Position numbers and translations under genes: made by a program. The notes beneath the pieces were generated by a model. That model made no database searches. It was not told the DNA's origin and saw only the letters and a program-made list of their open reading frames with translations. DNA of 55,820 nucleotides from a virus: the IMG/VR virus record IMGVR_UViG_3300012349_000007, positions 1 through 55,820 of that record. One strand, written 5' to 3'. Below are positions 1 through 52,120 of the stretch, piece after piece (positions within the stretch are counted from its first letter, which is position 1; every line of letters starts with the position of its first letter).

Positions 1-52
1 CGAATAGAATAGCGGCAATCTCAAGGGCGAGATTGGTGTTTTGTTGTTGCAT
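1..52 (-). CDS. N-terminal part of membrane protein spanning the contig junction
   Basis: The ATG at 52 has an AGGA ribosome binding site 8 nt upstream. The 17 codons to the left edge run in frame into the minus-strand frame at 55820, giving 215 residues in total (52 + 596 = 648 nt = 216 codons with the stop). This part encodes the start of the first hydrophobic segment. See 55225-55820 for the rest. Confidence 0.8.
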   Translation of the reverse strand, partial: MQQQNTNLALEIAAILF

Positions 53-102
53 ACGTTTGTTCCTTTCGTGTTATACTGTTGTTCAAAACGAGAGAGAAAC
101 CG

Positions 103-417
103 ATGACTACGAACGGGCGTGATACCCATTTTCAAGGTTTTGCTGACCTTCTTTTTCCAGAGATTTCTAAACTTTTCTTTACCATGTATGCCCGTATCTT
201 GGAACATAGGCAGATAGAAGAAATCGATGCAATTGAGGATGAGATTAGAACCCTCATCGCTCAGGGGGCTTATGATCTGGCTATTCATGTCTTGAGTCAT
301 GCGAATGAACGCATGAACTTGAAATTAACGAACATCAAGGCGTGGGTGGACTTAGGAATACCAGACCTCACAGAATGGCCTACTCGTGGAAGCCCAGACT
401 TACCAGAGCAGCAATAA
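103..417 (+). CDS. Small acidic phage protein, paralogue of the 54281-54601 product
   Basis: I do not recognise a named family for this 104-residue protein. I chose ATG 103 (GAGAGA upstream) over a TTG at 79. It shares three blocks with the product of 54281-54601: an N-terminal HFQ.FA.LL stretch, LIAQ.AYDL followed by His, and PDLT.W near the C-terminus. Because the molecule is circular the two copies lie only about 1.4 kb apart. Its 3' end overlaps the convergent membrane-protein gene by 38 nt. An extended -10-like TATACT at 72-77 could drive it. Function unknown; the shared blocks suggest one fold with a duplicated role. Confidence 0.7.
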   Translation: MTTNGRDTHFQGFADLLFPEISKLFFTMYARILEHRQIEEIDAIEDEIRTLIAQGAYDLAIHVLSHANERMNLKLTNIKAWVDLGIPDLTEWPTRGSPDLPEQQ

Positions 418-556
418 TCAAGAGAAAAGCCAGGATGCCGTAAGCGATAGCCCAGCCCCAGGAGCCGCCTCTGTAATGAGCCAGGGCTAGCTCAGTAGAG
501 CGAACGACAAACCAAAGTAGGATGAGAAAGCCGACGTGCGTATCAAGTAAAATCAT
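380..556 (-). CDS. Small two-helix membrane protein, holin candidate
   Basis: A 58-residue protein with two hydrophobic segments (about residues 2-18 and 33-52) joined by a short polar loop containing Arg, His and Gly. I chose the ATG at 556 because GGAGG sits 8 nt upstream; an ATG at 571 would place the Shine-Dalgarno inside the gene. It follows the lysin gene on the same strand, the usual place for a class II holin, but sequence alone cannot prove pore formation. The junction-spanning membrane protein downstream is the other candidate. Confidence 0.65.
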   Translation of the reverse strand: MILLDTHVGFLILLWFVVRSTELALAHYRGGSWGWAIAYGILAFLLIIAALVSLGFHE

Positions 557-27282: not shown

Positions 27283-27642
27283 TTACGTTGCCTCCATAAT
27301 TCTCGGAGAAGGACTCGAACCTCCACCCACATGGTCAACAGCCATGCGCTCTACCTCTCTTGAGCTATCCGAGAGCGGTTCCTCTATCACGACGCACAGC
27401 GTATACTTCCGACCTGTCATGATGTATGCACAAAATTTGTGATGTCCATCGAGTAGCGCAAACATACCCGTATGAGTGTCTGATGGTACGACAAAGAGCA
27501 GTCCTGGATACTTATTTGGGTAATCGAGCAAAAGCTGAATATACTCCAACAGCTTCTCAACATATCTCTGTTGGAACTCTTTAATCTGAATACACTCTAA
27601 AGATATCCATCTGATACTCAACTTCGCATTTGCGCTAATCAC
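27283..27642 (-). CDS. ParB/Srx-like protein overlapping the tRNA gene
   Basis: 119 residues from a GTG at 27642 (AGGTGG upstream, TAGTG overlap with the previous stop); an ATG at 27666 would overlap more. The motif FALLDGHHKFCAYIMTG resembles the DGHHR core of ParB-like nuclease/Srx folds. Residues from about 90 onward (SDSSREVERM...) are simply the tRNA-Asn gene read in frame, so the true domain may end there. Unusual: tRNA and protein overlap on the same strand. Confidence 0.6.
   Translation of the reverse strand: MISANAKLSIRWISLECIQIKEFQQRYVEKLLEYIQLLLDYPNKYPGLLFVVPSDTHTGMFALLDGHHKFCAYIMTGRKYTLCVVIEEPLSDSSREVERMAVDHVGGGSSPSPRIMEAT
27300..27374 (-). tRNA. tRNA-Asn (GTT)
   Basis: A complete cloverleaf: acceptor TCTCGGA/TCCGAGA, D stem GCTC/GAGC, anticodon stem CATGG/CCATG with loop CTGTTGA (anticodon GTT), T stem GGAGG/CCTTC (one G-T pair) with TTCGAGT loop, discriminator A. 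No CCA is encoded. It lies just upstream of terS, inside the 3' part of an ORF. Confidence 0.9.
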
Positions 27643-28719: not shown

Positions 28720-28789
28720 GGTGACTGGCGGGATTTGCACCCGCGTTTCCAGGCGTCCCTGGCGATCTACTGGCTAAGCTACAGTCACC
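28720..28789 (-). tRNA. tRNA-His-like gene with shortened anticodon arm
   Basis: Acceptor GTGACTG/CAGTCAC is perfect, with an extra 5' G (28789) facing a C discriminator, the G-1:C73 identity of tRNA-His. The T arm GCGGG/CCCGC with TGCAAAT loop is intact; the D stem has one mismatch. The anticodon arm is CCAGG-GACG-CCTGG: stem complete but loop only 4 nt, so no anticodon can be read. Probably a decayed tRNA-His or a non-decoding tRNA mimic. Confidence 0.6.
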
Positions 28790-29610: not shown

Positions 29611-29723
29611 TAGGAATGTCAAAGGGTGTCTCGCTTGCCGTGAGATGCATCTGCTGAGAGTGTAGCACAAGTATTCTTGAAAAATCAAGAAATATCTTGT
29701 ATAACTTAACTAGGAATGTCAAA
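29611..29723. repeat. Two 13-bp direct repeats before the integrase
   Basis: TAGGAATGTCAAA occurs at 29611-29623 and 29711-29723, exactly 100 bp apart, upstream of the integrase start. They could be integrase or excisionase arm sites. The rest of 29457-29738 shows no gene. Confidence 0.45.
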
Positions 29724-29738
29724 CCTCCACACAGCAGT

Positions 29739-30779
29739 ATGACCAGAAACGACGAATGGCCGCCGTTTGCCTTTGCACCTTCAGACCCATGGGGAAGGTG
29801 CTATTTGTCATTCCTTCGCAGAAAGTTTGACCGATCTGGCAGTCAAAGTACGCTCGTCCACTACCGACAGTACCTCATCCAATTCTTCACGGAGCCCGTC
29901 GCAAAAATGCCAGATCGCTATACACGCGAGGATGTTGAGGCGTTTATTCATAGTCCTGGCCGGGGACCAGGGAGAGAAGGTGATCCGCCTTCTGTCGGCC
30001 TGATGAATAATAGGCTGAGCCTGTTAAACTCGTTCTACAACTATGCTGCAAGCTATAGCATCACTGGGGAAGACGGCAGTATAGAGCCATTAATGAAACG
30101 CATGTCACCGACTGCTGGGCTAAAGCACATGCAGCGGGAGCGTCCACCGTACCGTGCGATGACGGCTAATGAATTACAGCGCTTCTTTGATGCTATCCCC
30201 AAAGACACGGTTATCGGGCTCCGCGATAGAGCGTTATTTTTGACCTATTTCTACACGGCACGCAGGCGGAGCGAGATTGTTGATTTGCGCTGGGGCGACC
30301 TCGAATATGGAACCATCATTGATGGAAACATGCGGTACAATTCGTGGATTTACCATTTTCGTGGTAAAGGGCATAAGCGTCAAGATGACTCCGCGGAGTT
30401 GCCCCTCCCAGCGAAAGTAGCGATAGATCGCTATTTGGAAGTTTCGGGTCGGAAGGACAGCATCAAATCTGAAGACCCCATTTTCACTGCTGCTGATAGG
30501 CGATACAAAAGCAATCCACCGCGACCACTTCACCCTAACACGGTGTGGCACGCGGTGAAGGTCTACGCGGCTAAGGCAGGACTTGATCCGAGGAAAGTAA
30601 CAACGCACAGTTTCAGACACACAAGTGCCAGGCGTCGTTTTGAAGCCGGTTCAACTATTCGAGAAATTCAAATCCTGCTGCGTCACTCCACCATGGCCGT
30701 GACCCATCTGTATCTTGAAGAGTCGTCAGCAGCGGACCCTGGTGCGAAACTCCTGGAAAAGCTATTCGAAGATTTGTGA
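29739..30779 (+). CDS. int: Tyrosine integrase
   Basis: 346 residues from ATG 29739 (no strong ribosome binding site; a TTG at 29697 is upstream in frame). An N-terminal SAM-like core-binding domain (about 20-125) leads to the catalytic domain with RRRSEIV (first Arg), GKGHKR (Lys), HSFRHTSARR (His-x-x-Arg), LRHSTMAVT (His) and the nucleophile Tyr in THLYLE. Integrates the genome at a host site. It stands between the late and early arms, followed by a strong terminator-like hairpin. Confidence 0.9.
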   Translation: MTRNDEWPPFAFAPSDPWGRCYLSFLRRKFDRSGSQSTLVHYRQYLIQFFTEPVAKMPDRYTREDVEAFIHSPGRGPGREGDPPSVGLMNNRLSLLNSFYNYAASYSITGEDGSIEPLMKRMSPTAGLKHMQRERPPYRAMTANELQRFFDAIPKDTVIGLRDRALFLTYFYTARRRSEIVDLRWGDLEYGTIIDGNMRYNSWIYHFRGKGHKRQDDSAELPLPAKVAIDRYLEVSGRKDSIKSEDPIFTAADRRYKSNPPRPLHPNTVWHAVKVYAAKAGLDPRKVTTHSFRHTSARRRFEAGSTIREIQILLRHSTMAVTHLYLEESSAADPGAKLLEKLFEDL

Positions 30780-33860: not shown

Positions 33861-33916
33861 CTGAGCCACGTGGGAGTGTGTTGGTATGGAATATAAAGAC
33901 GACGTATAGTTTCCAC

Positions 33917-33945
33917 TTGACCGAATTGTATCAATGTGGTATGCT
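33917..33945 (+). promoter_or_regulatory. Promoter for the second excisionase-like gene
   Basis: TTGACC (33917-33922), 17 bp, TATGCT (33940-33945) with TGG just before it. The same design as at 31148-31176, so both HTH genes share an extended -10 promoter type. Confidence 0.65.
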
Positions 33946-33983
33946 TACAGTGGCATATCGTACGTATGCCAAAGGAGGTTCTA

Positions 33984-34181
33984 GTGATCACTATGGACTA
34001 TTTAACCGCAGAGGAGGTAGCTACAGAGCTTCGATATTCGGTCACAACTGTAAAACGGATGCTTCGTACCAACGAAATGCCAGGCTACAAGTTTGGCGGC
34101 GAATGGCGCATCGACCGGGCCGAGTACGAAGAGTGGAAGCGACAACGCAAAAATCAATATCAGAAACCAGCAGAGGATTAA
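33984..34181 (+). CDS. Excisionase-like HTH protein 2
   Basis: 65 residues, GTG 33984 (AAAGGAGG 5 nt before); ATG 33993 is further from the ribosome binding site. LTAEEVATELRYSVTTVKRM, then MPGYKFGGEWRIDRAEYEEW: the same winged-helix class as 31227-31421. Its place just before the replication initiator suggests control of the early operon rather than excision. Confidence 0.8.
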   Translation: MITMDYLTAEEVATELRYSVTTVKRMLRTNEMPGYKFGGEWRIDRAEYEEWKRQRKNQYQKPAED

Positions 34182-34356
34182 CTGACCTTCTGGTTTTTCC
34201 AGTAGCGCACGTGCTGCAAAGAAGTCTCCACACACCTATGCAGCACGCTGTGTAGCACTACCTTGCTATCATTTTGCCATAGAACATGGCAAAAGGCAAG
34301 GGTAAGTTGCAGGGAATTCTACTGCTATTTCTAATGAACGTGAAGGGCAAAGGGCA
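34182..34356 (+). other. Leader region of the replication gene
   Basis: Contains the perfect hairpin TTTTGCCAT (34272-34280)/ATGGCAAAA (34286-34294), then a 24-codon frame starting at ATG 34286 and ending TGA 34360, which overlaps the initiator ATG (ATGA). It may be a leader peptide whose start lies in the hairpin arm, coupling initiator translation. Low certainty. Confidence 0.35.
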
Positions 34357-35871
34357 ATGAATCAGCATAGTGTGAAGACCGAAGAGCAAAAGGATAACGA
34401 CAATTACGCAAAGAACTTTACACGAGTTCCTAACATTCTTTTTGAGTCGTATAAGTATCTCACCAAAGAAGAGGTGCTTCTCTACATACGGCTGCGCTAT
34501 ATCTACTGGGATACGAAGCCGCGCTATCTCTCTCTGAGAGAACTGGCAGATATAACCGGATACTCGACAGGGGCATTAAGCAAAATGCTACCGCGCCTGA
34601 CGATCGTCGGTTTAATCCATGCTGAAATCAGAAGGAAAAAGGGCAAAGACGGTAAGGAAAAAGGCAATCCCATATATCACATCACCATCAATGATATATG
34701 GGAAGAAAACCGCAAGTTCTTCACAGAAGGGCATTTTGACCCAAGTGAAGCGCTACTTGTTCACGAAATGAATGAAACCAGTTCACCAAATGAACAGGAT
34801 ACACCGAAACCAGTTCACCAAATGAACAAGCCTGTTCATAAAATGAACGACCCTGTTCACGAAACCAGACAAGATAGTTCACCAAATGAACAGGATCAAG
34901 CACAAAATAACCCACATAAGACTAATAGTAAGACTATTGATAATACTTCAACACAAGAAGAGAGTGTTACGCCCACCATTGCAGACGTGCCGGCATGTGG
35001 CGCTAACGCGCCAGCACTCTCTGCTTTGCCACTTCAAGAAAAAATGCTTGAAGAGGAAACGATCTGCTCTAAGTGTGGCAATCTTACTATCACCCCAAAT
35101 GATTGCCCTTGGTGTAAAGCGTCAAAACAAGTTTCCCTCCAAGAGAAAGGACAGACCGATGGAAGCAGCAACAATAATCATCGTCATCTCAGCAGTCTCA
35201 ATAGCCACCAACCTCTTCGTCAGCAATTGGATACTGCTGACGATACGCATGGAGCTACGCCTACTCAACAGAAAGAAGGATTAACCGATGGACATGACAG
35301 CATTCACAACCCTACTCATCTTCTGGATCATGGTAGCAATCTTAGCATTGGCACTCACAGCGATCGTCATCCTGGAAAATCGCCCGTAGCCCAACAGACA
35401 TCCACCTCCAAGCCTGTTCAGGAAGTCCCCCCACTTGCCACTTTGAGCAAGGTGCCTGAACAGGCCGCGTTGATGGCACCTGCGGAACCGAAACCGCGTG
35501 CCAGATCGGCACCGAAAAAGGCCGTAGAGAAGCCAGCGGGCCCGCCTCCAAGCGAGATGGAGTGGAGCACACGCAAATGTATGATGTTGTTCGATTTCTG
35601 GCGTGGAGCGCCACTGATCGGTACGTACAAAAACTCGCAGGCGTCCACGTGTGCGAAGGGATTAGCCGCCAACTACACCGAGCAGCAGGTAGTTGATGCG
35701 AGAACGGATATGGAAGCTGACATTTATTGGATGTCTCACGGAGGAGTAGATATCTGCGAGGTAGCGAACAACATCCACAAATATGTCAGGAAGCGCCAAC
35801 TAACTATTGTGGAGAAAGCTCCAGTGCCGGTGAAAATTGACCGCGAATACTTGAAGAGAGTGAAGCCATGA
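34357..35871 (+). CDS. Replication initiator, lambda-O-like, with origin inside
   Basis: 504 residues. The N-terminus (about 15-125) is a winged helix with FTRVPNILFES and LSLRELADITGYSTGALSKM, the type of phage initiators. Residues 134-178 are a low-complexity Asn/Gln/Pro stretch coded by palindromic iterons. A zinc-knuckle with CSKCGN and CPWC lies at 237-254. Residues 268-344 have an odd His/Asn-rich sequence because two membrane-protein genes are overprinted there. The C-terminal domain (about 390-480: MMLFDFWRGAPLIG, ADIYWMSHGG) may bind the DnaB helicase encoded next (4-nt overlap). Confidence 0.75.
   Translation: MNQHSVKTEEQKDNDNYAKNFTRVPNILFESYKYLTKEEVLLYIRLRYIYWDTKPRYLSLRELADITGYSTGALSKMLPRLTIVGLIHAEIRRKKGKDGKEKGNPIYHITINDIWEENRKFFTEGHFDPSEALLVHEMNETSSPNEQDTPKPVHQMNKPVHKMNDPVHETRQDSSPNEQDQAQNNPHKTNSKTIDNTSTQEESVTPTIADVPACGANAPALSALPLQEKMLEEETICSKCGNLTITPNDCPWCKASKQVSLQEKGQTDGSSNNNHRHLSSLNSHQPLRQQLDTADDTHGATPTQQKEGLTDGHDSIHNPTHLLDHGSNLSIGTHSDRHPGKSPVAQQTSTSKPVQEVPPLATLSKVPEQAALMAPAEPKPRARSAPKKAVEKPAGPPPSEMEWSTRKCMMLFDFWRGAPLIGTYKNSQASTCAKGLAANYTEQQVVDARTDMEADIYWMSHGGVDICEVANNIHKYVRKRQLTIVEKAPVPVKIDREYLKRVKP
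34759..34891 (+). repeat. Origin iterons: five GTTCA-N5-TGAAC palindromes plus a half-site
   Basis: Perfect 15-bp copies at 34781, 34813, 34834 and 34877, an imperfect one at 34759 and a half-site at 34855. Start-to-start steps are 22, 32, 21, 21 and 22 bp, about two helical turns. They lie inside the initiator gene just after the winged-helix coding region, as in phage lambda. Confidence 0.8.
34892..34960 (+). other. AT-rich unwinding-element candidate
   Basis: An A-rich, T-rich stretch immediately downstream of the iterons (runs such as TAATAGTAAGACTATTGATAAT at about 34923-34944). In lambda-type origins such DNA melts next to the iterons. Inferred from position. Confidence 0.5.
35159..35284 (+). 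CDS. Overprinted small membrane protein 1
   Basis: 41 residues in the +1 frame inside the initiator gene. AAAGGA lies 7 nt before ATG 35159. Residues 5-28 are hydrophobic (TIIIVISAVSIATNLFV, then WILLTI), followed by a basic tail (RLLNRKKD). The hydrophobic run and well-spaced ribosome binding site argue for a real gene. Role unknown. Confidence 0.6.
   Translation: MEAATIIIVISAVSIATNLFVSNWILLTIRMELRLLNRKKD
35288..35389 (+). CDS. Overprinted small membrane protein 2
   Basis: 33 residues, same frame as the preceding nested gene. AAGGA is again 7 nt before the ATG, and only 3 nt separate the two. Residues 5-28 form one transmembrane segment (FTTLLIFWIMVAILALALTA), ENRP at the end. The matching ribosome-binding sites support both. 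Confidence 0.6.
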   Translation: MDMTAFTTLLIFWIMVAILALALTAIVILENRP

Positions 35872-37205
35872 CCGAGAAATGGGTACCAACCAACGTGGAG
35901 GCAGAGGAAAGCGTGCTTTCTCACTTGCTCAGTGCTCCACGCAAAATCACGGAAGTGGTAGATCGTTTATCCCCTGAGCACTTCTGTTCAGATCGCGCCA
36001 GCCGTGTCTACCAACTCATGGTGACGTTAGCGCATCAGGGGAAGGCATGTACCGTCTCTAACGTCTATGATGCCTGGGCAAGAGCATATGGGGTGGACGA
36101 TGAAGTCTATGATTTTCTTGAAGACCGCTATGGCCTCTTTTCTGCATTCATGACGCCTTTTGAAGACCAGGTGGAGAAAGTCATTCGCGTGCATACCATG
36201 CGCCGTCTCATCTCAGCCGCTCAGCATATCGCAGAAGTCGCCTATGCTCAGGATGACAATGCTATGGACGTAGCCGAGCAACTTATTTACGATATTGCCA
36301 GGGGCGTAGACGGTGATACAGTGGCAACGCTGGCGCAAGTGAAGCAGCGCTACATGCAAGAGTTTGAGCAACGGCGTGAAAACCTCCTCAACGGCATAGC
36401 CAATGGCATTCCGACCGGCTTTCATGAGCTAGATGTCATCTTAGGCGGTTTGCAGCCCTCCAATCTCTATACCCTCGCAGCTCGTCCTAGCCTGGGTAAG
36501 ACAGCCCTGGCACTCAACTTTGCTCTCTACATCGCTAGACATGCCCGCCGGTGCCTGTTTTTTAGCCTGGAGATGAGTGAGTTAGAGTTATTCCAGCGCT
36601 TGCTAGCCATAGAAACGCCTGTCGATCAATCGTTCTTACGCGACGGCGATGTGAACGAGCAGGAACTTGAAGATATCCGCTACACGGCTAACGACCTGGC
36701 TGAACTCGATATGTTGATAGATGACCGAACCTATACCCTGGCTGGTATATGCAGCAAGGCCCGGCGTGAACATGCCCGCAAACCACTTAATCTCATCGTG
36801 GTTGATTACCTCCAATTGATCGATACTTCCCCGGAAGGGCGAAACAAGAACAAGATGCGCTACGAGGAAGTAGGCGAATTCTCGAAACGGTTGAAACGTC
36901 TGGCCAAAGAGTTGAAAGTGCCGGTCATTGCCATAGCGCAACTCAACCGCGACGTGGAAAGCCGACAAAGCCCAAAGCCGCGTATGTCTGATTTAGGCGA
37001 AAGTGGCAAACTTGAGCAGGATATGGACGTTGTGGCCTTCGTCTACTGCGAGGAAACTGAGCTTGCAAAAAAGGAGAACTGCGAACCGTACAAAGTCCAT
37101 GTTCACGTGGCCAAGCACCGTAATGGACGCTTAGGCGATGTCGAGTTGTGGTTCAGGCCCCGGATCACCAAATTCCAGGATGAGGAGCCGGACTATGAGC
37201 AATGA
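35868..37205 (+). CDS. dnaB: Replicative DNA helicase (DnaB-like)
   Basis: 445 residues. N-terminal DnaB domain (about 1-110), linker, and RecA-type ATPase domain with Walker A ARPSLGKT (205-212), FFSLEMS (H1a), LIVVDYLQLI (Walker B, about 307-316), and IAQLNRDVESR with the arginine finger motif. Unwinds DNA at the fork. Overlaps the initiator stop (ATGA) and the next gene. Confidence 0.95.
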   Translation: MTEKWVPTNVEAEESVLSHLLSAPRKITEVVDRLSPEHFCSDRASRVYQLMVTLAHQGKACTVSNVYDAWARAYGVDDEVYDFLEDRYGLFSAFMTPFEDQVEKVIRVHTMRRLISAAQHIAEVAYAQDDNAMDVAEQLIYDIARGVDGDTVATLAQVKQRYMQEFEQRRENLLNGIANGIPTGFHELDVILGGLQPSNLYTLAARPSLGKTALALNFALYIARHARRCLFFSLEMSELELFQRLLAIETPVDQSFLRDGDVNEQELEDIRYTANDLAELDMLIDDRTYTLAGICSKARREHARKPLNLIVVDYLQLIDTSPEGRNKNKMRYEEVGEFSKRLKRLAKELKVPVIAIAQLNRDVESRQSPKPRMSDLGESGKLEQDMDVVAFVYCEETELAKKENCEPYKVHVHVAKHRNGRLGDVELWFRPRITKFQDEEPDYEQ

Positions 37206-40365: not shown

Positions 40366-41118
40366 ATGTATACCTACACATTGTCTTATCCTGAAGATTA
40401 CCTTGAGCTAGAGAAAGCAGGTACCATCTTCTATGTGGGTAAGGGAACGGGTAATAGGATACATCAGCATGAGAGGGAGGCTAGAAGGGGCGGGAAAGGC
40501 TATAAGTGTAACGTTATCCGCAAGATAGAAGCTTTGGGAGGAAAGGTTGTCAAAAAGATACTTGCCCACTTCAGCACACATAAAGAGGCTACTTGGTATG
40601 AAATAGCGTTAATCTTTTTTCTGCCTAATTTAACGAACTTAACATTAGGCGGTGATGGTTTAGTAGGCTATGTCATGACCACAGAGCACAAAACAAACAT
40701 AGGCAAGTCGATTAAGGTCTATACCCGTACTGAAGAGGAAAAGAAGCATTTAGCAGTACTTCGTACTGGCAAAACCACTTCTGCTGAGACACGAATAAGG
40801 CAGGGCATAGCTCATCAAGAGTTAACCCATACTGAGGAGGCAAAGCGGAAAATTCAAGTTGCTAATACGGGACGCAAAATGCCGAAAGAAGCCATTGAAA
40901 GGCGCATATTGATTATGGAAGGGAAGCCAAGGATCATCAATCACTCAGGGAGAACCTATTCGGGGCTCATTGCGCCTAATGGTCAACAGTACGATAACAT
41001 CACCAATCTTACAGCATTTTGTAGAGAACATGGGTTACAACAACCTCAATTAAATCTGGTTGCAAATGGTAAGCGAAAATCATATAAGGGTTGGCATTTG
41101 CGACAAGAGGGAGCATAG
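40366..41118 (+). CDS. GIY-YIG homing endonuclease with NUMOD-type DNA-binding repeats
   Basis: 250 residues. N-terminal GIY-YIG variant (VYTLSYP-like start, FYVGKGTGNRIHQH, then KKILAHFSTHKEATWYEIALI; residues 1-95). The middle has NUMOD3-like SAETRIRQGIAHQ, AKRKIQVANTGRKMP. The C-terminus has an IAPNGQQYDNITNLTAFCREH minor-groove module. AAAGGAG ribosome site. A typical free-standing homing nuclease. Flanked by the direct repeat GGTATTCCTA (40331, 41121). AT-rich relative to its neighbours, suggesting acquisition. Confidence 0.88.
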   Translation: MYTYTLSYPEDYLELEKAGTIFYVGKGTGNRIHQHEREARRGGKGYKCNVIRKIEALGGKVVKKILAHFSTHKEATWYEIALIFFLPNLTNLTLGGDGLVGYVMTTEHKTNIGKSIKVYTRTEEEKKHLAVLRTGKTTSAETRIRQGIAHQELTHTEEAKRKIQVANTGRKMPKEAIERRILIMEGKPRIINHSGRTYSGLIAPNGQQYDNITNLTAFCREHGLQQPQLNLVANGKRKSYKGWHLRQEGA

Positions 41119-43627: not shown

Positions 43628-43810
43628 CTAGTGTTTCCGTTCTATTTGCTTTGCACAGGCTTCACATTTGCCCGTCTCGTGGTCAATGAGTTCCATGCGA
43701 GTATCCACCGGTCGGTGGCACTCACTGCACTCTTGCAATGGAACTTCTGTCCACTGGCTAAGCGCCTTACCATCATGGGCCCAGGCTCTGAATACTTGGT
43801 TCTTTCTCAT
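43628..43810 (-). CDS. Small zinc-binding protein, first product of the switch region (60 aa)
   Basis: ATG 43810 with AAGGAG 8 nt upstream. CSECH and CEAC give a zinc ribbon; the N-terminus is helical and basic. Its promoter (43856-43884) is near-consensus and shares a 13-bp -35 segment with the rightward promoter at 44863. Could be a regulator of the switch, but no DNA-binding motif other than the zinc site is seen. Confidence 0.6.
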   Translation of the reverse strand: MRKNQVFRAWAHDGKALSQWTEVPLQECSECHRPVDTRMELIDHETGKCEACAKQIERKH

Positions 43811-43855
43811 TTTCGCTTCTCCTTGACTCAATTTTGTGTTTCCTTCACTATCTAT

Positions 43856-43884
43856 ATTATAGCACATAGTCACCAATTAGTCAA
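43856..43884 (-). promoter_or_regulatory. Consensus promoter, leftward
   Basis: TTGACT (43879-43884), 17 bp, TATAAT (43856-43861). The -35 lies in the shared phrase TAAAGTGTTGACT and follows operator copy A. Confidence 0.85.
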
Positions 43885-43893
43885 CACTTTAGT

Positions 43894-43921
43894 AACCAAT
43901 TTTCAACGAATTTTGAAAACT
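43894..43921. promoter_or_regulatory. 28-bp operator copy A
   Basis: Identical to 44812-44839. Core TTTTCAA-CGAATT-TTGAAAA is a near palindrome. It sits 9 bp upstream of the -35 of the leftward promoter at 43856-43884. Confidence 0.7.
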
Positions 43922-43940
43922 CATAAAACTCGTTGAGGGA

Positions 43941-44112
43941 GGTGCTATTTTTTGAAAAAATAGCACCAGTTTCTCTCAATCAGTTTCTTTATAATGCGTT
44001 TCTCTCACAAGGTTTCTTTCTTAGTACGATGTCTAGGGAGTAGACCCCAGCGGTCTAAAGGCTAGACGAAGCGGTCTACTCAGTAGACCTCCTGGACGTC
44101 TACCGTCTAGAC
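43941..44112. other. Second origin candidate: iterons and a 27-bp perfect palindrome
   Basis: Palindromes GTCTA-N5-TAGAC occur at 44031, 44053 and 44074, a half-site at 44098 and an GTCTAGAC at 44105 (starts 22, 21, 24 and 7 bp apart). The last contains the stop codon of the winged-helix gene. On the left is a perfect 13-bp hairpin with 1-nt loop (43941-43967, GGTGCTATTTTTT arm), in AT-rich DNA. Same architecture as the array in the initiator gene but with other arms. Confidence 0.6.
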
Positions 44113-44454
44113 CCCTCGTACTTTCAGCTTGTAATACTTCTTAATTCTGGCTTTATCTCGTTCATCCTTTTTGCAGAGCAGATAGCCATGTTCTACCGCT
44201 CTTGCAATGCCATCGAGTACGGATTGTCTGCTGAGCCCTGTTCCATAATCGAGATTATTTCTTCCCTCCATAAATTCCTTAATGGTGATCTTTTTCCATT
44301 GATCGATCTCACCAAATCCCCAGGTATGACGCGCAACGTAGAAAAGGATCTTGAGCTCTGCGAGATTATCAACCTCCCTGAAAACGTCAATCCAATCATG
44401 GGGTATGCGAGTAAACCCGTATTCATTCGGGTTATCGAAACCTTCAAAAGTCAT
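44107..44454 (-). CDS. Stand-alone winged-helix protein, RepO N-terminal-like
   Basis: 115 residues. Pattern EYGFTRIPHDWIDVF, then LAELKILFYVARHTWGF, ITIKEFMEG and SRQSVLDGIARAVEHGYL matches the N-terminal DNA-binding domain of phage replication initiators; compare FTRVPNILFES in the 34357 product. There is no helicase-binding C-terminal domain. The palindrome array begins at its stop codon. It may bind those iterons as initiator, plasmid-style repressor or copy-number control. Confidence 0.7.
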   Translation of the reverse strand: MTFEGFDNPNEYGFTRIPHDWIDVFREVDNLAELKILFYVARHTWGFGEIDQWKKITIKEFMEGRNNLDYGTGLSRQSVLDGIARAVEHGYLLCKKDERDKARIKKYYKLKVRGV

Positions 44455-44557: not shown

Positions 44558-44746
44558 CTATGCTACTTCTTTTGCCTGCTTGTTATCCGCTAATCTTTCA
44601 TTTAATGCCTTGCATCTCCTATAAGCACCCTGCTTTTGTGGATAGACTTTTGTGTTATACGGCACCCTGTCGTTATAGTGAATCGGAGCCGAAGGACACC
44701 AAAAAATCTGATATCCACCCTCAACGGGAAACACCTTGTACTCCAT
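44558..44746 (-). CDS. Hypothetical protein of the switch region (62 aa)
   Basis: ATG 44746 with AAAAAGGAG upstream. A beta-type N-terminus (EYKVFPVEGGYQIFWCPS) and a Lys/Arg/Asn/Gln-rich C-terminal helix. It is the first gene after the leftward promoter at 44785-44813. Not recognised. Confidence 0.55.
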   Translation of the reverse strand: MEYKVFPVEGGYQIFWCPSAPIHYNDRVPYNTKVYPQKQGAYRRCKALNERLADNKQAKEVA

Positions 44747-44784
44747 ATTTGTCTCCTTTTTGTTATTATTGCCTTCCCTTTTAT

Positions 44785-44813
44785 AAGGTAACATATAAAC
44801 AACGAGAAGTCAA
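44785..44813 (-). promoter_or_regulatory. Leftward promoter under operator B
   Basis: TTGACT (44808-44813), 17 bp, TACCTT (44785-44790). Two bases of the -35 lie within operator copy B. TCGTT occurs just downstream of the -35. Confidence 0.65.
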
Positions 44814-44839
44814 CCAATTTTCAACGAATTTTGAAAACT
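44812..44839. promoter_or_regulatory. 28-bp operator copy B
   Basis: Identical to the 43894-43921 copy. It lies between divergent promoters (leftward 44785-44813, rightward 44863-44891), a good place for one repressor to control both. Confidence 0.7.
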
Positions 44840-46287: not shown

Positions 46288-46764
46288 ATGTGGCTATGCC
46301 AATGTGACTGTGGCAATACTAAAGTTCTAAAGTTCAGTGATATGTCAGGCAACCATACAAGAAGTTGTGGATGTTTGGTCAGAGAAGTCAATAAAAATAA
46401 CACCTACCGCCAAAAGCCTGATGGTTCATCGGCATTCAATCAACTTTACTTGGCTTACAAGAAAAGTGCTCGTTACCGAGGGTTATCCTTCGAGATTACA
46501 GAAGGTGAGTTTAGAATGCTCACAAAAAGCGATTGCTTTTATTGTGACCTACCACCTTCTTTACAAGCAAGTACTGTGAAGAAAACGCATGGAGAATATA
46601 TCTACACGGGTATTGATCGTATAGATAACTCTAAAGGATACACCCTAGATAATGTAAAACCATGTTGTAAGCAATGTAATTATGCCAAGCGGGATTTATC
46701 AGAACAAGAGTTTTTGGAGTGGATAACGCGCTTAGCTGCGCACCTAGTGATGCAAGAGAGGTGA
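46288..46764 (+). CDS. HNH homing endonuclease body, N-terminus probably frame-disrupted
   Basis: From ATG 46288, 158 residues: WLCQCDCGN, HTRSCGCL (the treble-clef-type N-terminal zinc module), then FYCDLPP, GIDRIDNSKGYTLDNVKPCC, CNYAKRDL (HNH core). The same frame is open back to 46108 without a standard start, coding LSFAGIHIDSCGHKRR, so the gene is longer than its ATG suggests. Lies just before the annealing-type protein. Could still cut if a shorter protein is functional. Confidence 0.75.
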   Translation: MWLCQCDCGNTKVLKFSDMSGNHTRSCGCLVREVNKNNTYRQKPDGSSAFNQLYLAYKKSARYRGLSFEITEGEFRMLTKSDCFYCDLPPSLQASTVKKTHGEYIYTGIDRIDNSKGYTLDNVKPCCKQCNYAKRDLSEQEFLEWITRLAAHLVMQER

Positions 46765-50468: not shown

Positions 50469-51398
50469 ATGGATGGCCTTGTTCCCTATCAGCAACAGCG
50501 TATAGAGCAATCAATTGTAGACGTTTTAAAGATCCTTGATAGCAAGGAGTCAAAGCGAGTCTACAATCTTGATATTGCCTACTTTGCTGAGTGGATGAAA
50601 GAAAAGCACCTGACTTACCAATCTGTGACTACCTCAGATATTATCGCTTATCGTGAGCTGCTAGGGCAGACATTTAAGAAAGCTACATCGCAACGCATGT
50701 TTTCAGTTATTCGACGTCTTTTTAAGATGCTTGTTAGTCGAGGTGTGCGAACTGATGACCCTATCACGGATGTAAAGGGTTTCAAGCTTGCTAATGAGAG
50801 TACCCATATAGCTCTGAGCAAAAAGCAAGCAGAAAATCTATTAGACTCAATTGATACAAGCAGCCCAAAGGGCAAGCGTGATTATGCATTACTATCTCTC
50901 CTTTTACGGACTGGCATCCGACGCTCTGAATGTGCTGCATTGAATATAGGCGACTTAAGTACAGAGGAGGGATATCATATTGCCACTATCCAACATGGAA
51001 AAGGAGATAAACGGCGTATCGTGAAAATACCTGTAGACGTCTTTCGCTCCTTAGAGAGATATATACAAGCCTCTGGTAGAACTATAACATCACTGGATAA
51101 CCCGCTCTTTATCGGTTTTGATAGACGTCCTGAGTATGAAAGCCAACGCATTAGCGAGAAGGTGATAGAGCGTGTGGTTAGAGAATATGGTAAAAATATT
51201 GGCTTCTTACCTCCAAAGAGGCTTACCCCTCACGATTTGCGGACGTCGTTTATCACACTCTCAAGGGAAGGTGGAGCTACCTTAGAGCAGAGGCAATTTG
51301 CAGCAGGTCATTCAGACCCGCGCACAACACAACGCTATGATGTCCGCAAACTAAACCTAGACCATAATGCAGTAGATTATATTCACTTGTGGGAGTAA
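50469..51398 (+). CDS. Tyrosine recombinase 2 (XerC/D-like)
   Basis: 309 residues. N-terminal core-binding domain (1-105), then catalytic domain with TGIRRSECAA (Arg), HGKGDKRR (Lys), HDLRTSF (His-x-x-Arg), AGHSDPRTTQRYD (His and Tyr). Start ATG 50469. It is expressed from its own promoter and coupled to an HNH gene. It may resolve dimers, integrate at another site, or move a cassette. Confidence 0.88.
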   Translation: MDGLVPYQQQRIEQSIVDVLKILDSKESKRVYNLDIAYFAEWMKEKHLTYQSVTTSDIIAYRELLGQTFKKATSQRMFSVIRRLFKMLVSRGVRTDDPITDVKGFKLANESTHIALSKKQAENLLDSIDTSSPKGKRDYALLSLLLRTGIRRSECAALNIGDLSTEEGYHIATIQHGKGDKRRIVKIPVDVFRSLERYIQASGRTITSLDNPLFIGFDRRPEYESQRISEKVIERVVREYGKNIGFLPPKRLTPHDLRTSFITLSREGGATLEQRQFAAGHSDPRTTQRYDVRKLNLDHNAVDYIHLWE

Positions 51399-51406
51399 AC
51401 GATCAG

Positions 51407-52120
51407 ATGCTACAAAACCTAGGAACTGGAAAATGTGACACTTGTTTAGAAAGCCCTCGCCCTTTGTTTTCGTTTCATCAGGAATGCGTTTATGTTCGTA
51501 ACCCTGGTGAGGGGAGATATTGCCCTGCTTGCATTCTCACTTTTCAACAGGAATGTGATGTACCTCCGCGTGAATGGTTACGCCGTTGTGATGATTGCTT
51601 TACGTATATGGCATTCAAAGACCTTCTGCGGCATGAGCGGATAAAACATCGATGGTGGGGTTTTTGTCCTGACTGCATGGCAAAACAAATCAGGCGGAAT
51701 AGCCTTACCTGTGTAGTATGCGGTGAGTCCACACTTGAATATACATACCTTTCTCGTATCCATTCTACATGCGAGAAATGCTATGTGCATTCACCAAAGT
51801 TAGCGGTAGTCATGTATCATAATAGCAGAGCAAAAGCATTGAACTTGCCTGCTACACTGACAACAGAGCAATGGGAACAAGCTATAAAACATTTCAATCA
51901 TCGTTGTGCTTATTGTCCTGACGGGCCTTATGAAGTACTAGAACATTTTTTACCTTTATGTCTTGGAGGTGGTACAGTAGCAAATAACTGTGTGCCTGCT
52001 TGCCATTCCTGTAATGTTCGTAAGAAGGATAAGCACCCTAACGACTTCAGCAGATTGTTTCCGGCTTCGAACATCGCTCGTATCACGGCGTATCTGGCTC
52101 AGCACGTTGGCGTGCTATAA
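51407..52120 (+). CDS. HNH endonuclease with multiple zinc knuckles
   Basis: 237 residues from ATG 51407 (a GTG 51389 would overlap the recombinase). Cys pairs at CDTCLE, YCPAC, RRCDDC, FCPDC, TCVVC, CEKC (several zinc sites), then a C-terminal HNH: RCAYCPDGP, EVLEHFLPLCLGGG, NNCVPACHSCNVRKKDKHP. The link with a recombinase (no gap) suggests a functional unit or a co-mobile cassette. Confidence 0.8.
   Translation: MLQNLGTGKCDTCLESPRPLFSFHQECVYVRNPGEGRYCPACILTFQQECDVPPREWLRRCDDCFTYMAFKDLLRHERIKHRWWGFCPDCMAKQIRRNSLTCVVCGESTLEYTYLSRIHSTCEKCYVHSPKLAVVMYHNSRAKALNLPATLTTEQWEQAIKHFNHRCAYCPDGPYEVLEHFLPLCLGGGTVANNCVPACHSCNVRKKDKHPNDFSRLFPASNIARITAYLAQHVGVL

What the first reader, a model, noticed from the sequence alone, without database searches (positions are those of the whole stretch)
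43941..44454. A second iteron array tied to a stand-alone initiator-type winged helix
GTCTA-N5-TAGAC palindromes at 44031, 44053 and 44074 with further half and compact sites repeat the 5-5-5 bp architecture and the 21-22-bp period of the first array, but with changed arms (GTCTA versus GTTCA). The adjacent 115-residue protein matches only the initiator N-terminal domain and its stop codon lies inside a palindrome. A perfect 13-bp hairpin in AT-rich DNA lies alongside. Two origins, or an origin and an initiator-decoy control system, would be new for such a phage.
Basis: partly seen in the sequence, partly recalled or inferred. Interest (0 to 1): 0.88.

Follow-up and report, generated by a model that had tools for sequence, protein, structure and literature searches.

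The report
Second lambda-type origin module in phage
This phage carries, 9 kb from its ordinary replication-origin gene, a second miniature set built the same way (a DNA-binding domain of the replication-starter protein on its own, plus a matching row of binding sites and an easily opened DNA stretch), which most likely serves as a second, separately addressed origin or origin-like control site.

Summary
There are four, not three, perfect GTCTA-N5-TAGAC palindromes (44031, 44053, 44074, 44098). An unbiased scan finds only this array and the known GTTCA array in the 55.8-kb phage, and none in 20 shuffles. The 115-aa protein is the isolated winged-helix DNA-binding domain of the lambda O (Phage_rep_O) initiator family.

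Comparative evidence says it is cognate to the adjacent array. Relatives with helix motif LSRQ[SA]V/LSKQSV carry GTC[TA]A-N5-TAGAC iterons. Close relatives with LSRP[SA]V carry GTTAA-type iterons in the same register. The window's main initiator and its G009 relative share GTTCA sites.

The layout (domain gene, then iterons at 21-24 bp, then an A-rich purine tract on the gene-sense strand) is that of ori-lambda. The same domain-only gene plus array occurs beside partition genes in a 153-kb phage-plasmid.

The cassette is absent from three related phages at the same regulatory hub. The best reading is a second lambda-type origin module with a domain-only initiator. Whether it fires, blocks forks or regulates transcription is unproven; it lacks a helicase-loading domain and DnaA boxes. 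It is a new variant of a known kind.

The parts
44107..44454 (-). 115-aa stand-alone winged-helix protein: DNA-binding domain of the Phage_rep_O initiator family, no C-terminal domain; recognition helix residues 76-88 (RQSVLDGIARAVE region)
44031..44045 (.). iteron 1, GTCTA-GGGAG-TAGAC
44053..44067 (.). iteron 2, GTCTA-AAGGC-TAGAC
44074..44088 (.). iteron 3, GTCTA-CTCAG-TAGAC
44098..44112 (.). iteron 4, GTCTA-CCGTC-TAGAC, overlaps the stop codon of the 115-aa gene
43967..44031 (-). putative unwinding element: A-rich purine tract on the gene-sense strand with four direct 8-mers A[AG]AGAAAC (GTTTCTYT on + at 43969, 43983, 43998, 44012)
43941..43967 (.). perfect 13-bp inverted repeat with 1-nt centre (hairpin or cruciform), role unknown
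43792..44010 (.). AT-rich stretch (33% GC or less) holding the lowest-GC 100-bp window of the genome (43831, 28%)
43856..43884 (-). strong sigma70-like promoter (TTGACT-17-TATAAT) for the 82-aa zinc-ribbon-like gene 43628-43876; about 150 bp from the array, not overlapping it
44558..44794 (-). 78-aa gene upstream in the same minus-strand hub; homologues in L210 and L211 are not followed by a winged-helix gene or array
34357..35871 (+). main O-like initiator (504 aa) with in-gene GTTCA array, for comparison
34759..34891 (.). first iteron array GTTCA-N5-TGAAC (four perfect, one 1-mismatch), followed by an AT-rich stretch 34869-34969
35868..37205 (+). phage DnaB-type replicative helicase next to the main initiator

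Best explanation
The feature is a second, accessory lambda-type origin module. Shown by sequence: an isolated initiator DNA-binding domain (115 aa) is followed by four iterons, then an A-rich stretch with direct repeats, then a hairpin. Inferred from comparison: the protein binds the GTCTA-N5-TAGAC iterons as dimers, does not address the GTTCA iterons of the main initiator, and forms an O-some-like complex that bends DNA and opens the neighbouring A-rich tract. Inferred and least certain: helicase is then supplied in trans (the phage DnaB at 35868-37205 or a host loader), since the protein lacks the initiator's C-terminal half and no DnaA box lies next to the array. The cassette sits in the divergent regulatory hub of the phage and is absent from relatives, so it is an accessory origin, perhaps for a different life stage from the in-gene origin at 34.8 kb.
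For: Array beyond chance, one of only two in the genome. Domain family: 34% identity, E 8e-7, to the N-terminus of the G001 initiator; 12 of 13 aligned relatives match PF04492 Phage_rep_O; fold match to 'lambda GpO N-terminal' models, rmsd 1.7; profile match to the window's own initiator N-terminus, 94.7%. Cognate specificity: relatives found by protein search with SRQ[SA]V have GTCTA iterons, those with SRP[SA]V have GTTAA iterons in the same register; Pasteurella phage Pm86 'replication protein O' with LSKQSV has GTCAA-N5-TAGAC in its gene; the window initiator and its 48%-identical G009 relative share GTTCA arrays. Layout: lambda iterons are 5-N5-5 at 20, 24 and 23 bp; the 60 nt after the last iteron on the gene-sense strand is 47% A, 68% purine, 33% GC here against 50%, 67%, 32% in lambda; such composition occurs at 0.05% of positions; the only four-copy 8-mer cluster of the genome is there; the lowest-GC window of the genome adjoins it, and array 1 adjoins another of the four lowest-GC stretches. 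Precedent: L059, a 130-aa domain-only PF04492 protein plus downstream GTCTA array and DnaA boxes, lies beside ParA and actin-like partition genes in a 153-kb phage-plasmid and is that record's only hit in this family; L062 has the same anatomy.
Against: No replication, binding or depth data. The protein lacks any helicase-loading domain. No DnaA box within about 500 bp of the array, unlike L059 and the Patescibacteria-type relatives. The AT-rich stretch also holds a strong promoter, so its composition may partly reflect regulation. The cassette lies in a regulatory hub where G001 has a MerR-like gene. The same palindrome serves in other bacteria as a two-site operator of other winged-helix repressors (assignment to BlaI/MecI type is from general knowledge). 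Absence from relatives means no conservation can be shown.
Confidence: 0.47

Rival explanations
1. Replication roadblock or late-stage switch: the domain-only protein sits tightly on the array and stalls forks started at the 34.8-kb origin, helping the switch to concatemer replication, as proposed for G38P bound at SPP1 oriR 12 kb from oriL.
For: Explains why a DNA-binding domain alone suffices; the two arrays are 9.2 kb apart; SPP1 precedent (PMC3485210).
Against: In SPP1 the same initiator binds both sites, here the domains and sites differ; the AT-rich tract with repeats would be unnecessary; no sign of conservation in relatives.
Confidence: 0.17
2. Transcriptional regulator with multi-site operators: an initiator domain recruited as a repressor or activator of the divergent hub, the array being its operator.
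For: Location in the divergent regulatory hub opposite the early promoter, where G001 has a MerR-like gene; strong promoters nearby on both flanks; the same palindrome type occurs as two-site operators in bacterial chromosomes and in actinophages.
Against: The array is downstream of its own gene and about 150 bp from the nearest predicted promoter, overlapping none; four copies at 21-24 bp is iteron-like rather than operator-like; the hub's own promoters share a different repeat (28 bp at 43894 and 44812).
Confidence: 0.2
3. Competitor exclusion or decoy: the free domain and its array titrate or jam initiators of rival phages with GTCTA-type origins.
For: Cloned lambda iterons block rep-lambda phages (PMC3349717); GTCTA-type initiators exist in diverse phages; the array is foreign to this phage's own initiator.
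Against: No relative of this phage group found with GTCTA-type arrays (one record has a single isolated site); a decoy array would not need the A-rich repeats.
Confidence: 0.07
4. Relic of an exchanged initiator gene: the domain and iterons of a former full-length initiator left behind after domain swapping.
For: Domain-plus-iteron cassettes do swap in this group: G001 and the window share the C-terminal half but not the N-terminal domain and array; the array begins just where in-gene iterons would.
Against: Intact ORF and four perfect palindromes argue against decay; it lies 9 kb away from the initiator locus in a different operon; no remnant of a C-terminal domain follows.
Confidence: 0.09

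Closest known systems
Phage lambda ori within gene O
   Same: Winged-helix initiator domain, then four 5-N5-5 palindromic iterons at 20-24 bp, then an A-rich purine tract, all in the same gene-sense order.
   Different: Here the coding part stops at the domain, the iterons and A-rich tract are non-coding, there is no C-terminal half and no P-type loader next door, and it is the second such module in the genome.
Phage SPP1 oriL and oriR with G38P
   Same: Two separate origin-like arrays about 10 kb apart, one inside the initiator gene (PMC3485210).
   Different: In SPP1 one initiator binds both; here each array has its own domain with its own sequence preference.
Phage P1 with lytic oriL/RepL and plasmid oriR/RepA
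   Same: Two origins with two different initiators in one phage; oriL is thought to lie inside the small repL gene with an essential AT-rich part (PMC9948254; the oriR/RepA part is from my own knowledge).
   Different: Different initiator families; the window has integrases and no partition genes were seen.
Short Phage_rep_O proteins of Patescibacteria-type elements and of the L059 phage-plasmid
   Same: Same winged-helix family, same GTCTA-N5-TAGAC iterons, short proteins of 130-190 aa.
   Different: Those arrays have DnaA boxes beside them and most are the only hit of this family in their element; the window has no DnaA box there and has a second, full-length initiator.
Two-site palindromic operators of BlaI/MecI-type repressors
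   Same: Same GTCTA-N5-TAGAC palindrome in Bacteroides and actinobacterial chromosomes; assignment to BlaI/MecI is from general knowledge.
   Different: Usually two sites, no initiator-family domain in my search, and no A-rich repeat tract noted.

Membership tests
Phage_rep_O (PF04492) initiator family | Sequence match of the protein to the family model | tested here: inconclusive
   The 115-aa protein itself gives no Pfam hit, but 12 of 13 aligned homologues do, it aligns to them at 27-36% identity, and it matches G001's initiator at E 8e-7.
Phage_rep_O (PF04492) initiator family | Winged-helix DNA-binding domain fold | tested here: met
   AlphaFold2 model, pLDDT 73.5, helices, strands and wing in winged-helix order; best named viral match 'Bacteriophage lambda, GpO, N-terminal', rmsd 1.7 over 103 columns.
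Phage_rep_O (PF04492) initiator family | C-terminal half that contacts the helicase loader or helicase | tested here: not met
   The protein ends at residue 115, directly after the wing; the gene's own frame, read past the stop, closes again within nine codons.
Lambda-type replication origin | Array of palindromic iterons of 5-N5-5 type at 20-24 bp next to the initiator domain | tested here: met
   Four perfect sites at 22, 21, 24 bp; lambda 20, 24, 23.
Lambda-type replication origin | Adjacent A-rich unwinding tract on the gene-sense strand | tested here: met
   Composition only: 47% A, 68% purine, 33% GC in the 60 nt after the last iteron against 50%, 67%, 32% in lambda; at 0.05% of genome positions. 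Unwinding itself not tested.
Lambda-type replication origin | Iterons inside the initiator coding sequence | tested here: not met
   Only the stop codon and the last codon overlap the fourth palindrome; the rest is non-coding.
Lambda-type replication origin | Supports initiation of replication with its initiator | not testable with these tools
   Needs plasmid replication or depth mapping.
Origin with DnaA boxes (as in the short-protein relatives) | DnaA box beside the array | tested here: not met
   No TTATNCACA match with 1 mismatch or fewer between 43.28 and 44.63 kb.
BlaI/MecI-type operator and repressor | BlaI/MecI family protein beside a two-site operator | tested here: not met
   No hit of the 115-aa protein to any repressor family in Pfam, PHROGs or NCBIfam; four sites, not two.
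SPP1 oriL/oriR two-origin system | The same initiator sites in both arrays | tested here: not met
   GTTCA against GTCTA arms; no GTCTA-N5-TAGAC at the first array and no GTTCA-N5-TGAAC at the second.

The most novel reading that the evidence does not exclude
Domain-only Phage_rep_O proteins with a downstream iteron array are a so far unrecognised class of minimal phage replicon, and this phage runs two lambda-type origins with different addresses, one full-length and in-gene, the other carried as an exchangeable cassette in its regulatory hub.
Probability: 0.35. Interest if true: 0.75.

Novelty: new variant of a known kind. Interest (0 to 1): 0.57.

Why it matters
If the module fires, a phage can own two lambda-type origins that are addressed separately, which would make it testable whether the C-terminal half of O-type initiators is dispensable when helicase is supplied otherwise. 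If it does not fire, it is a natural example of an initiator domain turned into a fork block or regulator. Either way the Q-to-P change in the recognition helix that goes with GTCTA-to-GTTAA iterons is a ready handle on how this initiator family reads DNA.

Tried and rejected
Rejected: the array as a truncated coding part of a full-length initiator at this place (no C-terminal domain follows; two gene-sense frames are closed within the array and the third, open across it, closes just beyond). Rejected: the hairpin as an ordinary terminator of the minus-strand genes (no T-run after it in that direction). Rejected: a decoy for the phage's own initiator as the main reading (different domain subfamily and arms). 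Led nowhere: single-protein searches of viral and genome contigs, phages and plasmids with the 115-aa sequence; a search with the 82-aa neighbour; PDB sequence search; Foldseek and VIA-align against PDB gave only generic winged helices, with DnaD N-terminus and TubR among many, which says fold, not function. TubZRC partition was considered because of TubR-like size; no TubZ was noticed in the ORF list, but I ran no dedicated search. The host could not be named (nearest terminases in known phages about 34% identical). GC-skew profile not informative, as gene direction dominates it.

Full report
What was checked. The window is a 55,820-base virus record. It encodes a terminase, major head protein, two tyrosine integrases, an O-like initiator (34357-35871) and a DnaB helicase (35868-37205). 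A 56.4-kb relative, G001, is collinear with it, and the two ends of the window adjoin each other in G001, so the window is close to a whole, circularly permuted genome.

The array. GTCTA-N5-TAGAC occurs four times without mismatch at 44031, 44053, 44074 and 44098. A scan that did not presuppose the motif (three or more identical 5-bp-arm palindromes, spacer 0-8, within 160 bp) returned exactly two arrays in the window, the GTTCA array inside the main initiator gene and this one, and none in 20 block shuffles. Spacings are 22, 21 and 24 bp. The iterons annotated in lambda are spaced 20, 24 and 23 bp and the first is CCCTC-AAAAC-GAGGG, also 5-N5-5.

The protein. The 115-aa ORF (44107-44454, minus) is too divergent for Pfam, PHROGs or NCBIfam by itself. 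It is linked to the lambda O family by four routes. First, 34% identity, E 8e-7, to the N-terminus of G001's 464-aa initiator. Second, an alignment of 13 relatives of which 12 match PF04492 Phage_rep_O. Third, a predicted winged helix whose best named viral match is a lambda GpO N-terminal domain, rmsd 1.7. Fourth, a profile match to the window's own initiator N-terminus at 94.7%. It ends right after the wing: a DNA-binding domain and nothing more.

Protein and array belong together. Scans of viral and genome contigs for paired GTCTA palindromes gave two kinds of places: two-site operators in Bacteroides and actinobacterial chromosomes, and multi-copy arrays inside or directly after initiator-type winged-helix genes. 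In the second kind the recognition helix and the iterons change together. In loci found by protein search, not by DNA, proteins with LSRQ[SA]V carry GTCTA-type iterons and their close relatives with LSRP[SA]V carry GTTAA/GTAAA-type iterons at the same register of 17, 23 and 23 bp. Pasteurella phage Pm86's annotated replication protein O has LSKQSV and GTCAA-N5-TAGAC sites in its gene. Conversely the window's main initiator and its 48%-identical counterpart in G009 both have GTTCA arrays. The window's 115-aa protein has LSRQSV and a GTCTA array. Binding to this array and not to the first is therefore the expected outcome, though unproven.

Origin-like surroundings. In gene-sense order one finds the domain gene, four iterons, and then an A-rich purine tract that holds four direct 8-mers 14-15 bp apart, the only such cluster in the genome. 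Its composition (47% A, 68% purine, 33% GC in 60 nt) is that of the lambda unwinding tract (50%, 67%, 32%) and is found at 0.05% of genome positions. The lowest-GC 100-bp window of the genome (43831, 28%) lies about 100 bp beyond it in the same AT-rich stretch, and of the four stretches at or below 33% GC another adjoins the first array. A 13-bp hairpin lies at the far end of the repeats. This is the order of parts of ori-lambda (PMC7466680), with the difference that iterons and tract are non-coding.

Precedents. L059, from a 153-kb record with ParA and an actin-like partition protein, has a 130-aa domain-only PF04492 protein followed by GTCTA palindromes and DnaA boxes, and no other member of the family. 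L062 has a 149-aa domain-only protein with four GTCTA palindromes downstream. Domain-only initiators with arrays thus recur, in one case where a plasmid origin is expected.

What speaks against an active origin. The 115-aa protein has no part that could load a helicase. There is no DnaA box nearby, unlike L059 and the Patescibacteria-type elements. The place is the divergent regulatory hub: G001 has a MerR-like gene there, and L210 and L211 have the upstream 78-aa gene without the winged-helix gene or any array. The hub's promoters make part of the AT-richness expected. SPP1 shows that a second initiator-bound site can act as a fork block (PMC3485210), and cloned lambda iterons can exclude phages (PMC3349717). 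Hence the moderate confidence.

Conclusion. The thing is an accessory lambda-type origin module with a domain-only initiator, cognate to its own array and distinct from the phage's main origin. Function as a second origin is the best-supported reading at about one chance in two, with regulation and fork blocking as the main rivals.

Noticed in passing
window 43894-43921 and 44812-44839: A 28-bp perfect repeat with a palindromic core (AACCAATTTTCAACGAATTTTGAAAACT) lies upstream of both divergent promoters of the hub; L210 and L211 show similar CAACGAGTTT / AAACTCGTTG elements at the homologous promoter, so this is probably the operator of the phage's unidentified repressor.
   Followed up: partly
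window 34357-35871 against L040:15160-16554: The initiator's N-terminal domain plus in-gene iterons has been swapped as a cassette between this phage and G001, while the C-terminal half and helicase are kept at 85% nucleotide identity.
   Followed up: partly
window 33870-34275: This 407-bp stretch with an HTH_17 (excisionase-like) gene is 99.3% identical to G001, while most neighbouring matched stretches are at 68-88%, suggesting a recent exchange just upstream of the initiator.
   Followed up: no
window 1-555: 96% identical to G001 where most of the surrounding genome is near 80%, another probable recent exchange.
   Followed up: no
L186-L193, L080, L068, L073, L171: A family of Patescibacteria-type mobile elements places a 175-190-aa Phage_rep_O protein before RusA and, in several, after a RecA-like ATPase (names by inspection); a Q-to-P change in its recognition helix goes with GTCTA-to-GTTAA iterons, a natural specificity switch.
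   Followed up: partly
L059 7643-11080: A 153-kb phage-plasmid with ParA, an actin-like partition protein and a domain-only initiator with iterons and DnaA boxes: a candidate minimal replicon.
   Followed up: partly
window 29697-30779 and 50469-51398: Two tyrosine integrases; tRNA-Asn at 27300-27374 and a second tRNA match at 28720-28788 lie near the first.
   Followed up: no
window 40366-41118, 46288-46764, 51389-52120, 1681-2598: By inspection of the sequence, several GIY-YIG- and HNH-like homing-endonuclease genes are scattered through the phage.
   Followed up: no
L084-L181: GTCTA-N5-TAGAC pairs are common in Bacteroides and actinobacterial chromosomes as two-site operators, probably of BlaI/MecI-type repressors; the motif alone is therefore no proof of an origin.
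   Followed up: partly
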